This document shows positions 47,609-51,457 of a DNA stretch of 64,000 nt, in pieces. Position numbers and translations under genes: made by a program. Source of the DNA: Solirubrobacter deserti (GTDB lineage: Bacteria; Actinomycetota; Thermoleophilia; Solirubrobacterales; Solirubrobacteraceae); the NCBI RefSeq assembly GCF_027587175.1, contig NZ_JAPCID010000030.1, forward strand, positions 1-64,000, read 5' to 3'. Each line of letters begins with the position of its first letter. Position 1 is the stretch's first letter. A model generated the notes under the pieces. It was given only the letters and a program-made list of their open reading frames with translations. It did no database searches and had not been told where the DNA came from.

Positions 47609-47693
47609 AACGGCGCCACCGTGCCATGTGGCGTCGGTTCGCGCAACCCTCCAATGAGGGGACAGTCGACGGCGGTGCGTCCGCGCCGCCGCC

Positions 47694-47699
47694 TACCGT
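47694..47699 (+). promoter_or_regulatory. Possible -10 box for rarA
   Basis: TACCGT ends seven bases before the preferred GTG start at 47707 and is identical to the hexamer before the gene at 41126. The spacing fits a leaderless transcript and supports 47707 rather than the upstream in-frame ATG at 47626. Confidence 0.4.
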
Positions 47700-47706
47700 G
47701 GCAGCG

Positions 47707-48950
47707 GTGACGCTCTTCGAGGGACTCGTGTCGACGGCGGCGCCGCTGGCGGAGCGGATGCGTCCGCGCAACCTCGACGAGGTCGTCGGGCAGCGGGAGC
47801 TGACCGACCCCGCCGGGACGCTGCGGCGGGCGCTCGCGTCCGGGCAGCCGCACTCGTTGATCCTATGGGGCCCGCCAGGGTGCGGGAAGACGACGATCGC
47901 CCAGGCGATCGCGCGGGAGAGCGCGGCCGCGTTCGAGTCGCTGAACGCGGTGACGGACGGGATCGCCGATCTGCGCAAGATCGTCGCCCGCGCGACGGAG
48001 CGCCGTGCCATGGGACAGATGACGATCCTGTTCATCGACGAGATCGCGCGCTGGTCGAAGTCCCAGCAGGACGCGCTGTTGCCGCACGTCGAGAACGGCA
48101 CCATCACGCTGCTGGGCGCCACCACCGAGCATCCTGGGCACGAGATCGTCCGCGCGCTGCGGTCGCGGCTGAAGATCTATCCGCTCACGCCGCTGTCGGA
48201 CGACGACCTGCGCGAGGTCATCGAGCGCGCGCTCGCCGATCCCGAGCGCGGCCTCGGCGGCGCCCACACGCTCAGCGAGCCGGCGCTCGCGCGGTTGCTG
48301 GTCCACGCCGACGGCGACGCCCGCTCTGCGCTCAACGCGCTGCAGGATGCGGCCACGACCAAGCCGCAAGGCGGCGAGATCGACGAGCAGCACCTCGTCG
48401 GCGCCCTCGGCAGCCGGCCCGGCACCTACAGCCGCAAGGACGAGTACTACGCGATCATCAGCGCGCTCATCAAGAGCATCCGCGGCTCGGACACGGACGC
48501 GTCGCTGTACTGGCTCGCGCGGCTCAAGCACGGCGGGGCTGACCCGAAGGTCATCGCGCGCCGGCTGATCGTCGCGGCCGGGGAGGAGATCGGCACCGCC
48601 GCTCCGGGCGCGATCGCGGTCGCCAACTCGGCGTTCGACGCCGTGGAGCGCGTCGGCGCCCCCGAGTGCTGGATCCCGCTCGCGGCGGTGACAGCTACCT
48701 CGCGCAGTCACCCAAGAGCTGGGCGGCCTACCACGGCCTCAAGGCGGCCGAGGCGCTCGTCGCGTCCACGCCGGCCTACCCGGTGCCGCCGCACCTGCGC
48801 AACGCGAGCACCGCCGTGGACGAGCAACTCGGTCACGGCCGCGGCTACGTGCACGCGTCCCAGCCCGGCGGCGACCGGGTCCAGTTCATGCCGGACGCGC
48901 TGCGCAGCACCCGGCTCTATCAGCCCTCGGGCTCGGGTCGCGACCGCTAG
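47707..48950 (+). CDS. rarA: RarA-type AAA+ recombination factor, apparently frameshifted near the 3' end
   Basis: RarA (MgsA) acts at stalled replication forks as a clamp-loader-like AAA+ ATPase. From GTG 47707 the protein opens MTLFEGLVSTAAPLAERMRP, as usual for the family; an ATG at 47626 would add 27 residues of non-conserved sequence. Walker A is GPPGCGKT (residues 55-62) and Walker B is ILFIDEI (107-113), followed by a KSQQDALLPHVE block. The frame fits until WIPLAAVT at about 48690, after which the family's YLAxxPKSxAAY motif appears in another frame as SYLAQSPKSWAAYHG and runs to TAG 48950. One missing base near 48685-48700 explains this and would give 414 residues. As written, the first frame runs on as non-RarA sequence to 49062. 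The 3' end overlaps the convergent permease by CTAG. Confidence 0.85.
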
Positions 48951-49777
48951 CCGCGCCGGAGGGCGAGGACGCCGCGCGGGCCGAACAGGTACGCGAGCCC
49001 GAACAGCACGGTCAGGACGACCACGATCATGCCGCCCGTGGAGGCGTCGAGGTGGTAGCTGAGGTAGGTGCCGAGCACCGTGGAGAGCACGCCCGTGCCG
49101 ATCGCGAGCATCAGCAGCCGGTCGAAGCGGTCGGTCAACAGGTAGGCCGTGGCGCCCGGGGTGATGAGCATCGCAACGACGAGCACGATGCCGACGGCCT
49201 GCAGCGCGACGATCACCGTCAGCGCGAGTGCGCCGAGCAGGACCATCTCCAGCCGCCGCGGGGAGATGCCGATCGCGTGCGCGTGGACGGGATCGAACGC
49301 GTAGAGCACGAGCGACTTGCGCAGCAGCAGGAGCACGACGACCACAAGCACGCCGAGCACGAGCACCTGGAGGATGTCGCCGTCGCTGACGCCGAGGACG
49401 TTGCCGAACAGGATGTGGAAGAGGTCGACCTGGGACGGGATCACGCTCACGAGCACGAGGCCGAGCGCGAACAGGCCGGTGAAGACGATGCCGATGGCGG
49501 CGTCCTCCTTCACCCGGCTCGTGCGGTTCAGGCCGCCGATCAGGCCGACTGCGCCCGCGCCGAAGATGAACGCGCCCGCGGCGAACGGCGCGCCGATCAC
49601 GTAGCTGAGCACCACGCCCGGCAACACGGCGTGCGAGACCGCGTCGCCCATCAGCGACCAGCCGAGCAGCGTCAGCCAGCACGAGAGGACGGCGCACGCG
49701 ATGCCGACGACCACCGCGACGAGCATCGCGCGCTGCATGAACTCGAACGTCAGCGGGTCGATCAGCCAGTCGATCAT
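48947..49777 (-). CDS. Metal ABC transporter permease (ZnuB/MntB/SitC type)
   Basis: The 276-residue product has about eight hydrophobic segments and the ABC-3 permease signatures LGWSLMGDAVSHAVLPGVVL and AIGISPRRLEMVLLGALAL. It moves the metal released by the binding lipoprotein across the cytoplasmic membrane, powered by the adjacent ATPase. The ATG overlaps the ATPase stop by ATGA. It is the third gene of the operon binding protein, ATPase, permease. Its stop codon interlocks with that of rarA on the other strand, so there is no room for a terminator between the two genes. Confidence 0.95.
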   Translation of the reverse strand: MIDWLIDPLTFEFMQRAMLVAVVVGIACAVLSCWLTLLGWSLMGDAVSHAVLPGVVLSYVIGAPFAAGAFIFGAGAVGLIGGLNRTSRVKEDAAIGIVFTGLFALGLVLVSVIPSQVDLFHILFGNVLGVSDGDILQVLVLGVLVVVVLLLLRKSLVLYAFDPVHAHAIGISPRRLEMVLLGALALTVIVALQAVGIVLVVAMLITPGATAYLLTDRFDRLLMLAIGTGVLSTVLGTYLSYHLDASTGGMIVVVLTVLFGLAYLFGPRGVLALRRG

Positions 49778-50514
49778 GCGCGCAGGGCCTCCTGCGGCAC
49801 GAAGCCGCCGAAGGCCTCGGCCAGCAGGTCGGGGCGCAGGACGTCGTCGGCGTCGCCGTGGGCGATGATGCGGCGGTTGATCAGCGCGACGCGGTCGCAC
49901 AACGCGGGCACGGCCACGAGGTCGTGCGTGGAGACGACGATCGTGCGGCCCTCGGCGGCCAGGTCGCGCAGCAGCTCGGTGATCGTGGCCTCGCTGCGCT
50001 TGTCGACGCCCGCAAACGGCTCATCCAGGAACAGCAGCTCCGCGCCCTGGGCCAGGCCACGGGCGACGAACGCGCGCTTGCGCTGGCCGCCGGACAGCGC
50101 GCCGATCTGGCGGTCGCGCAGGTCGAGCAGCTCCACGCGCTCGAGCGCCTCGCTGACGCGCCGGCGGTCCTCCTCGCGCGTGCGCCGGCGCCAGCCCATC
50201 TGGCCGTAGCGGCCCATGGTGACGACGTCCTCGACCGAGACCGGGAAGGCCCAGTCGACGTCCTCGTTCTGCGGGGCATAGGCGACGCGGCCGGCGCGGC
50301 GGGCGCGCTCGGGGTCGGCGCCGTACAGGCGGACCTCGCCGGCGTCGACCTTCACGAGCCCCATGAGCGCCTTGAACAGCGTCGACTTGCCCGAGCCGTT
50401 CATGCCGATCAGCCCGTGCACGAGCCCGGGCTCGACCGTGAAGTCGAGGTCGTCGAGCGCGAGCGTGTCGCCGTAGCTGACGGTCAGGCCGGAGGCGGTG
50501 ATGGCGTCGGTCAT
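49774..50514 (-). CDS. Metal ABC transporter ATP-binding protein
   Basis: The 246-residue ATPase shows Walker A GMNGSGKST (residues 37-45), a Q-loop in APQNEDVDWAFPVSVEDVV, signature LSGGQRKR (140-147), Walker B LLFLDEP (160-166) and the switch His197 in VVSTHDL. The VDWAFPVSVEDVVTMGRYG stretch is characteristic of the Mn/Zn/Fe-chelate uptake subfamily. It overlaps the binding-protein gene upstream and the permease gene downstream by four bases each, so the stoichiometry is set by coupled translation. Confidence 0.96.
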   Translation of the reverse strand: MTDAITASGLTVSYGDTLALDDLDFTVEPGLVHGLIGMNGSGKSTLFKALMGLVKVDAGEVRLYGADPERARRAGRVAYAPQNEDVDWAFPVSVEDVVTMGRYGQMGWRRRTREEDRRRVSEALERVELLDLRDRQIGALSGGQRKRAFVARGLAQGAELLFLDEPFAGVDKRSEATITELLRDLAAEGRTIVVSTHDLVAVPALCDRVALINRRIIAHGDADDVLRPDLLAEAFGGFVPQEALRA

Positions 50515-51425
50515 GTGGAGGCTCCCGTGAGGCCGGCGATGATGGTCTGCGCGTCGCGGCGCAGGAGATCGAGGTAGGTGGGGACCGGGCCGTCGGCCTG
50601 CGAGAGCGAGTCGACGTACAGCGCGCCCGCGAAGCGCGCGCCGGACTCGTTCGCGACCTGCTTCATGGCCTCGTCGCTCACCGTCGACTCGCAGAAGACG
50701 GCGGGCACCTGGCGCTCGCGCACGAAGTTCACGGTGCCGGCGATCTGCTGCGGCGTGCCCTCCTGCTCGGCGTTGACCGGCCACAGGTACTGCTCGGTCA
50801 GGCCGAAGTCGCGCGCCATGTAGGAGAACGCGCCCTCGCAACTCACCAGCGCGCGGCGCTGCGGCGGCAGCGCGGCCAGCTCGCGCTTCACGAGCGCCCC
50901 GACCTCGTCCAGCGCACCGCTGTACTCGCGCGCGTTGGCGGCGTACACGGCCGCACCCGCCGGGTCGAGGTCGGTCAGCGCCTTGCGGATGTTCTCGACG
51001 TAAATTTTCGCGTTGGAGACCGACATCCACGCGTGCGGGTTCGGCTTGCCCGCGTACTCGCTCTCGCCGGCGATCGGGATCGGCTGGACGCCCGTCGAGA
51101 GCGTCACGCTCTTGGCGTCGGCGAGGTCGACGAACTGCTCGAACCAGCGCTCCAGCCCCATGCCGTTCTGCAGGACGAGGTCGGAGGTGGCCGCGTTCTT
51201 GAGGTCGGACGGCGTCGGCTCATAGCCGTGGATCTCGGCGCCGGGCTTGGTGATCGACGCGACCTCGATCCGGTCGCCGCCGACCTGCCGGACCATGTCC
51301 GCGACCACCGTGAACGTGGTCAGCACCTTCGGCTTCCCCGAGTCGGCGTCGTCCGTGGCGCCGCAGCCGGAGAGCGCGAGCGCGAGGGCTCCCACGGCCA
51401 CGATCCATCGGAGCGAGTTAGACAT
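50511..51425 (-). CDS. Metal-binding lipoprotein of Mn/Fe-type ABC transporter (cluster A-I)
   Basis: The 304-residue product has a lipoprotein signal with lipobox LSGC (Cys21). Family alignment gives metal ligands His66 (GAEIHGYEP), His131 (NPHAWMS), Glu197 (CEGAFSYMARDFG) and Asp272 (YVDSLS). The His-His-Glu-Asp set is that of PsaA/MntC/SitA proteins that bind manganese or ferrous iron. Zinc-type ZnuA proteins have a third His and usually a His-rich loop, neither of which is present. Manganese is the best guess. It is the first gene of the three-gene operon, and its start codon lies within a large inverted repeat that is probably the control site. Confidence 0.94.
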   Translation of the reverse strand: MSNSLRWIVAVGALALALSGCGATDDADSGKPKVLTTFTVVADMVRQVGGDRIEVASITKPGAEIHGYEPTPSDLKNAATSDLVLQNGMGLERWFEQFVDLADAKSVTLSTGVQPIPIAGESEYAGKPNPHAWMSVSNAKIYVENIRKALTDLDPAGAAVYAANAREYSGALDEVGALVKRELAALPPQRRALVSCEGAFSYMARDFGLTEQYLWPVNAEQEGTPQQIAGTVNFVRERQVPAVFCESTVSDEAMKQVANESGARFAGALYVDSLSQADGPVPTYLDLLRRDAQTIIAGLTGAST

Positions 51426-51457
51426 GGCTAAAAATCTAGCGCATGACGTCTAACTCG
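51414..51457 (-). promoter_or_regulatory. Inverted repeat and -10 box at the start of the metal transporter operon
   Basis: CGAGTTAGAC (51414-51423) and GTCTAACTCG (51448-51457) are perfect 10 bp inverted arms with 24 bases between them. On the minus strand the interval contains TAGATT (51438-51433), seven bases before the ATG at 51425, so the -10 box and the probable leaderless start site sit inside the repeat. A smaller imperfect repeat (ATGCGCTA against TAGCCAT) lies within it. This layout fits a repressor operator, probably for a DtxR/MntR- or Fur-type metal sensor; no such regulator gene is in the window. Confidence 0.6.

What the first reader, a model, noticed from the sequence alone, without database searches (positions are those of the whole stretch)
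51414..51457. Large inverted repeat enclosing the -10 box and start codon of the Mn-type transporter
Perfect 10 bp arms 24 bases apart flank TAGATT and extend to the ATG of the binding lipoprotein. This is where a metal-sensing repressor would block transcription. The arm sequence GAGTTAGAC differs from the usual DtxR and Fur boxes as I know them, so it may mark a different sensor or a lineage-specific box.
Basis: partly seen in the sequence, partly recalled or inferred. Interest (0 to 1): 0.55.

Follow-up and report, generated by a model that had tools for sequence, protein, structure and literature searches.

The report
Manganese-repressor operator centred on start codon
The repeat is part of a conserved binding site, probably for a manganese-sensing repressor, that lies on the promoter of a manganese-type importer with the gene's start codon exactly at its middle; the kind of switch is known, but this start-codon arrangement is unusual and recurs in several actinobacteria.

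Summary
The repeat exists exactly as described, but 10-bp arms with short gaps are no commoner here than chance. The unit that is conserved is an 18-bp palindrome, TTTTAGCCATGTCTAACT (51416-51433), whose downstream half is the start-proximal arm. An unsupervised search finds it upstream of 11 of 11 close orthologues examined, and a matrix built only from other actinobacterial classes ranks it first in the window. The box precedes 67 of 76 orthologous actinobacterial transporter genes and 0 of 16 distant paralogues. The distal arm is a left half-site exactly 22 bp upstream, the commonest spacing of paired boxes, so the two "arms" are best read as outer halves of a tandem pair. The start codon is the dyad centre and the -10 abuts the box, so the mRNA is probably leaderless; 30 of 67 loci share start-in-centre geometry. 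The likely regulator is the genome's MntR-type DtxR protein: relatives lie beside box-bearing Mn-type transporters, and in two congeners the box precedes a regulator-mntH pair. Binding, metal and transcription start are untested. New variant of a known kind.

The parts
51416..51433 (-). Main operator box, 18 bp, TTTTAGCCATGTCTAACT in gene direction; 14-bp core TTAGCCATGTCTAA at 51418-51431
   Evidence: top site in the window with matrices from outside the genus and from other actinobacterial classes only; found without supervision in 11 of 11 regions
51423..51425 (-). Start codon ATG of the binding protein, at the dyad centre of the box
   Evidence: in frame with the open reading frame 50511-51425
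51433..51438 (-). -10 hexamer TAGATT, 7 nt before the ATG
   Evidence: sequence; TACAGT and TAGCTT at the same place in the two congeners; not tested by transcript data
51447..51455 (-). Upstream left half-site AGTTAGACG, in the register of a second box 22 bp upstream (18-mer 51438-51455, otherwise degenerate)
   Evidence: best left-half register between -60 and -20 in all 3 genomes of the genus that have the gene; full 18-mer scores -9.2, -6.4 and -5.9
51414..51423 (.).
51448..51457 (.).
50511..51425 (-). Metal-binding lipoprotein, 304 aa (Pfam ZnuA family, closest solved relative MntC)
49774..50514 (-). ABC transporter ATPase, 246 aa; start overlaps the preceding stop (ATGA)
48947..49777 (-). 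ABC-3 family permease, 276 aa; start overlaps the preceding stop (ATGA)

Best explanation
The feature is the operator of a manganese-uptake operon (binding protein, ATPase, permease). When manganese is plentiful, a metal-loaded dimer of the genome's MntR-type DtxR-family protein binds the 18-bp palindrome whose centre is the ATG. It covers the edge of the -10 and the transcription start and so shuts off transcription. The -10 lies 7 nt before the ATG, so the mRNA is probably leaderless, and the operator's downstream half is also the first codons of the protein. Shown: sequence anatomy, conservation, gene context and regulator residues. Inferred: binding, Mn as co-repressor, the transcription start, and the role of the upstream half-site.
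For: Unsupervised palindromic motif search: 11 of 11 regions, score 259.9 against 120.7 +- 3.1 for 12 shuffles (five of the 11 are from one GTDB genus). Window site first with matrices from outside the genus and from other classes. 67 of 76 actinobacterial orthologous loci have the box (shuffled false positives 15 of 760); 0 of 16 distant paralogues have it. DtxR1-type genes lie divergently next to the transporter with the box between in L101 and L105 and within 3 kb of 16 of 80 named loci, one of them not actinobacterial. In G063 and G147 the box precedes a regulator gene followed by Nramp/mntH; own mntH has AGTTAGCCACACCATAAT, 14.5 bits, just upstream. Regulator ligand residues D-H-E-E-H as in B. 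subtilis MntR (reference recalled). Binding protein nearest to MntC. TANNNT ending 6-7 nt before the centre in 20 loci, all among the 30 with an in-frame start at the centre, none among the other 37.
Against: No binding, metal or transcript data. The regulator gene is not linked to the transporter in the own genome and has no box itself (best 4.5 bits); of 11 stand-alone regulator loci of relatives examined only 1 (L148) has a box. 9 of 76 actinobacterial loci lack the box at the threshold, one of them a close orthologue (L020), and 4 of 17 non-actinobacterial loci pass it. The box score of the nearest NCBIfam MntR model for the regulator is under the cut-off (216.6 of 350), and the NCBIfam scores of the binding protein barely separate Mn (205.7) from Zn (201.5) models, none over cut-off. 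M. tuberculosis MntR targets quoted in PMC11416365 look different. Many loci are closely related, so counts overstate independence. The genome is fragmented (428 contigs, 96.7% complete, 5% contamination).
Confidence: 0.8

Rival explanations
1. The box is read by the second DtxR-family protein (DtxR2, closer to the iron regulator DtxR/IdeR), so the operon answers to iron.
For: DtxR2 exists; both boxes share TTAG-N6-CTAA; DtxR-family proteins can cross-respond to Fe and Mn (PMC3327659 abstract and passages).
Against: DtxR1, not DtxR2, is the better match for each of the 16 regulators near named loci and for those next to box-bearing transporters in relatives. TTAGGG-type sites, not the CATG-centred one, lie by HtaA, siderophore-interacting protein and Peripla_BP_2 genes.
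Confidence: 0.09
2. The long 24-nt-spaced inverted repeat is itself a separate operator, for a dimer of another family that spans the -10.
For: Spacing and the inner GTTAG/CTAAC of the arms are kept in the 3 genomes of the genus although flanking DNA has diverged.
Against: Absent from the other 11 close orthologues; such repeats are no more frequent than chance; the distal arm falls in the 22-bp register of tandem boxes.
Confidence: 0.04
3. A Fur-family zinc or manganese regulator (Zur/Mur) controls the operon.
For: 10 FUR-family matches in the genome; the binding protein belongs to the Pfam ZnuA family.
Against: Of 16 distant binding-protein loci in the order, 7 show a loose Zur-like pattern (recalled) and 0 the box; the window site has DtxR-type half-sites.
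Confidence: 0.03
4. The conserved palindrome is an RNA element or a chance result of the start-codon context.
For: It overlaps the start codon and first codons.
Against: In other loci the same box lies upstream of the start with a different centre and no in-frame start, and before mntR-mntH; it is found by unsupervised search.
Confidence: 0.04

Closest known systems
MntR operators of Bacillus subtilis (mntH, mneP)
   Same: 18-bp sites of two 9-bp half-sites; adjacent sites bound cooperatively; metal-loaded dimer (PMC11275975, passages). Same ligand residues in the regulator (reference recalled).
   Different: Sequence differs (mntH oligonucleotide in PMC11416365); neighbouring B. subtilis mneP sites are 1 bp apart (about 19 bp centre to centre), here 22 bp centre to centre is commonest; the start codon is at the centre here.
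MntR (Rv2788) of Mycobacterium tuberculosis
   Same: Entry 5zr4, the best solved match of the regulator, identified as Rv2788 MntR by recall and by the reference in PMC11416365; it controls mntH and an Mn ABC importer (PMC5855569, passages).
   Different: The target oligonucleotides quoted in PMC11416365 do not resemble this box.
DtxR/IdeR iron boxes
   Same: TTAG-N6-CTAA spacing (recalled for DtxR/IdeR); repressing DtxR sites overlap the -10 or lie downstream of the transcription start in C. diphtheriae (PMC5784534, passages).
   Different: Inner bases GGC/GCC with NATG centre instead of the GGG-type iron boxes of the same genome.
DR2539 of Deinococcus radiodurans and its mntH operator
   Same: DtxR-type Mn/Fe-dependent repressor acting on an inverted repeat before mntH (PMC3327659, passages); a DtxR-like solved structure of putative iron repressor type is the second best match (8pvt).
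   Different: I did not see the DR2539 operator sequence, so similarity of the box is not tested.
MntR of Corynebacterium diphtheriae
   Same: Actinobacterial Mn regulator of an ABC importer, mntABCD (PMC13001254, passages).
   Different: Its site could not be read (papers not held); the two Corynebacterium loci in my set lack the box at the threshold.

Membership tests
DtxR/MntR-type operator | About 18-bp palindrome of two half-sites overlapping the promoter of a metal-uptake gene | tested here: met
   51416-51433 abuts and overlaps the -10 by one base and is centred on the ATG; conserved
DtxR/MntR-type operator | Bound by a DtxR-family protein in a metal-dependent way | not testable with these tools
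   needs gel shift or footprint
MntR (regulator subfamily) | Metal ligands Asp at the DtxR Met10 place and Glu at the DtxR Cys102 place | tested here: met
   D and E in DtxR1; residue meanings recalled; Asn instead of Asp in 4 of the 19 relatives aligned
MntR (regulator subfamily) | Score over the curated NCBIfam MntR cut-off | tested here: not met
   best model MntR of Thermus type, 216.6 bits of 350 needed; therefore called MntR-type, not filed as a named MntR
Mn-type ABC importer (MntC/PsaA group) | Closest characterised relative and ligand residues of Mn-binding proteins | tested here: met
   best match 3ujp/1xvl Mn transporter, E about 1e-100, with the two His, the Glu and the Asp of the recalled ligand set aligned; NCBIfam models all under cut-off
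Leaderless gene | -10 hexamer 6-7 nt before the start codon and no room for a ribosome site | tested here: inconclusive
   sequence register met; no transcript data
Tandem MntR array | Second full box at fixed spacing | tested here: not met
   only a left half-site 22 bp upstream in the window (full score -9.2); full second boxes occur in 20 of 54 other loci

The most novel reading that the evidence does not exclude
In several actinobacterial lineages the free 4-bp centre of the MntR-type palindrome has been used to hold the leaderless start codon of the Mn importer. One stretch of DNA is then at once operator, transcription start and the code for the first residues (Met-Pro-Lys/Asn/Gln and alike), and paired boxes at 22 bp form an MntR array with a register different from that of B. 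subtilis; in the window this array has decayed to one and a half boxes.
Probability: 0.5. Interest if true: 0.6.

Novelty: new variant of a known kind. Interest (0 to 1): 0.45.

Why it matters
It gives a testable Mn box for a little-studied class (Thermoleophilia) and for other actinobacteria, and suggests how iron and manganese boxes of one frame are kept apart in one genome. If the leaderless reading holds, it is a clear case in which a regulatory palindrome dictates the transcription start and the first residues of a protein, so start-site annotation and N-terminal 'conservation' in these genes should be read with that in mind.

Tried and rejected
The arm pair as a chance-beating palindrome: rejected. 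A tandem GGCATG-type pair in G063 (L155) matched the core, but it lies before a short-chain-dehydrogenase-like frame and looks like another operator (my reading); dropped. A perfect pattern match in the own genome at L090, with the start codon of a phosphodiesterase/hydrolase-like frame in the box (best NCBIfam match 39.7 bits, under cut-off), had no counterpart that I could recognise among the few pattern hits of G063 and G147; left open. All this covers open-licence papers only.

Dropped rows and limits: L013, L014 and L019 were left out as near copies. In one search one duplicate (L016 = L156) and 17 non-actinobacterial loci were left out; the latter were scored apart. Sites used to build matrices are partly the ones counted. 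An earlier group-level test (14 of 19) had split one GTDB genus into three groups; merged it is 12 of 17, p = 0.002, and 11 of 16, p = 0.004, without a single TTG locus. My notes say 14 second boxes at 22 bp; searches show 15. An early note gives the 14-bp core as 51419-51432; one search shows 51418-51431.

Full report
Observation. The two 10-bp arms are present as stated: CGAGTTAGAC at 51414-51423 and GTCTAACTCG at 51448-51457, 24 nt apart. The gene is on the minus strand. In its direction the sequence reads GAGTTAGACGTCATGCGC-TAGATT-TTTAGCC-ATG-TCTAACTC. Perfect 10-bp inverted repeats with gaps of 3-40 nt are as frequent as expected (22 against 21.5 +- 3.9 in 20 simulated windows), and the arm pattern is not enriched in the genome (64 per strand against 92 for the reversed control). 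So the palindrome alone proves nothing.

What the unit is. The start-proximal arm is half of a compact palindrome with core TTAGCCATGTCTAA (51418-51431), i.e. TTAG-N6-CTAA. Of 200 genomes of the order, 106 had a match to the binding protein; 14 genomes, the own included, have one at 66-100% identity, and the other long matches listed are at 40% or less. The upstream DNA of these 14 carries the same kind of box. A motif search that was told only to look for palindromes placed it in 11 of 11 regions (near copies left out; five of the 11 from one GTDB genus), score 259.9 against 120.7 +- 3.1 for 12 shuffles. With a pattern written after seeing those sites, 14 of 14 genomes have a place within one mismatch at or upstream of the transporter start. 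A matrix from 10 sites outside the genus scores the window site at 18.8 and the next window site at 9.9; 0 of 60 simulated windows reach it.

Breadth. Of 76 actinobacterial loci (63 of the 80, and 13 of the 14 close orthologues, one being a duplicate), 67 carry a box with consensus AGTTCGGCATGCCGAACT; shuffled false positives are 15 of 760. Loci without it include Aeromicrobium, four Brevibacterium, two Corynebacterium, one Microbacterium and the close orthologue L020, which scores 7.3 there though it has a site by the narrower matrix. A matrix from 31 sites of other classes only still ranks the window site first, 17.5 against 9.7. Of 16 loci with distant binding proteins from the same order, 0 carry the box and 7 show a loose Zur-like pattern (recalled); of 17 non-actinobacterial orthologous loci, 4 pass the threshold.

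Start codon at the centre. In the window and the two congeners with the gene (3 of 6 genomes of the genus have it), the ATG is the centre of the dyad and a TANNNT hexamer ends 7 nt before it. Of the 67 box loci, 35 have ATG, GTG or TTG at the centre, and 30 of these are in frame and open into the binding protein. TANNNT ending 6-7 nt before the centre occurs in 20 loci, all among these 30 and none among the other 37. Fisher p = 5e-10 and binomial p = 2e-10 against one third ignore relatedness; by genus-like groups made by hand 12 of 17 are in frame, p = 0.002. Where the box is not at an in-frame start, the central four bases often differ from NATG (for example CACA, CTAA, GTAC), which suggests that the centre is free and has been used to hold the start codon. 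The predicted N-termini (MSN, MPK, MPN, MPQ, MAK) are then written by the operator. Leaderless transcripts are common in this phylum, 20% in C. diphtheriae (PMC5784534, passages). In four close orthologues (L015, L017, L021, L025) the box lies upstream and holds no in-frame start.

The distal arm. In all three genomes of the genus with the gene the distal arm is a left half-site exactly 22 bp upstream of the matching half of the main box, and this is the best left-half register between -60 and -20. Second boxes within 15-40 bp occur in 20 of 54 named actinobacterial loci (0 of 400 in shuffles), 15 of them at 22 bp; ten of the 15 are Arthrobacter or Paenarthrobacter. That the half-site works is inference.

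Regulator. The genome has two strong DtxR-family genes and a third match just over the cut-off with its neighbours. DtxR1 (221 aa) has the MntR ligand set D-H-E-E-H (reference recalled), best solved match 5zr4, and its best NCBIfam model is an MntR, 216.6 bits of 350 needed; DtxR2 is nearest to the iron regulator model, also under cut-off. Of 200 genomes, 192 have a match to DtxR1 at E <= 1e-20. A DtxR1-type gene is divergent from the transporter with the box between in L101 and L105, and one lies within 3 kb of 16 of the 80 named loci, one of these not actinobacterial. In G063 and G147 the box AGTTAGGCATGCCATAAT precedes a DtxR1 paralogue (63-65% identical) that is followed by Nramp/mntH. The own mntH has AGTTAGCCACACCATAAT just upstream, the best site in 9 kb. 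Against this, the own mntR has no box, and of 11 stand-alone regulator loci of relatives only L148 has one. TTAG-N6-CTAA occurs 16 times in the genome against 5 for the control; of 6 TTAGGG/CCCTAA-type loci examined, 3 lie beside likely iron genes (HtaA, siderophore-interacting protein, periplasmic binding protein) and 3 do not. The iron and manganese boxes thus seem to share a frame and differ in the inner bases.

Mechanism. Shown: anatomy, conservation, gene context, regulator residues, and a binding protein nearest to MntC. Inferred: a Mn-loaded MntR-type dimer on 51416-51433 blocks RNA polymerase at the -10 and start; when Mn is short the operon is read from a leaderless mRNA; the upstream half-site helps a second dimer. 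In C. [quoted passage not shown]

Comparison. B. subtilis MntR uses 18-bp sites of two 9-bp half-sites, neighbouring mneP sites being 1 bp apart (PMC11275975, passages); here the length agrees, the sequence and the tandem register differ. The M. tuberculosis MntR oligonucleotides quoted in PMC11416365 look different. The C. diphtheriae MntR papers are not held, so identity with a known corynebacterial MntR consensus is not excluded. I found no report of a start-codon-centred MntR operator in the listings.

Verdict. Interest 0.45.

Noticed in passing
window 47626-49062 (+) and 48666-48950 (+): A RarA/MgsA-type ATPase gene appears split by a frame change near 48700: the MgsA_C domain is matched at profile positions 1-78 in one frame and 72-155 in the other. 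Sequencing error or broken gene not decided.
   Followed up: partly
own genome, L043, L049 and L050 around 1501-1514: TTAGGG-type TTAG-N6-CTAA boxes beside HtaA, a siderophore-interacting protein and a periplasmic binding protein: a probable iron-box regulon of the second DtxR-family protein.
   Followed up: partly
L090:2390-2403 (own genome): TTAGGCATGGCTCA box with the ATG of a phosphodiesterase/hydrolase-like frame at its centre; a possible second start-centred target.
   Followed up: partly
L155:1797-1850 (unnamed congener G063): Two near-perfect AAGTTGAGG...CCTCAAGTT-type palindromes 30 bp apart before a short-chain-dehydrogenase-like frame; probably another regulator's operator.
   Followed up: no
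L160, L180, L183, L192 and other Arthrobacter-type loci, first codons: Two boxes 22 bp apart lie at and inside the coding start, so that the conserved N-terminus MPNFLFRCAKV-like is largely written by the operators.
   Followed up: partly
L086 (own genome C1:868000-877000) against L087 and L088: A second binding protein-permease-ATPase-permease operon followed by mntH; the congeners have a DtxR1-type regulator gene between them that the own genome lacks at this place.
   Followed up: partly
L105:3295-3312 (unnamed relative G020): A further box-like site ATCTCGCTAAACCGAACC, 13.3 bits, downstream of the transporter genes.
   Followed up: no
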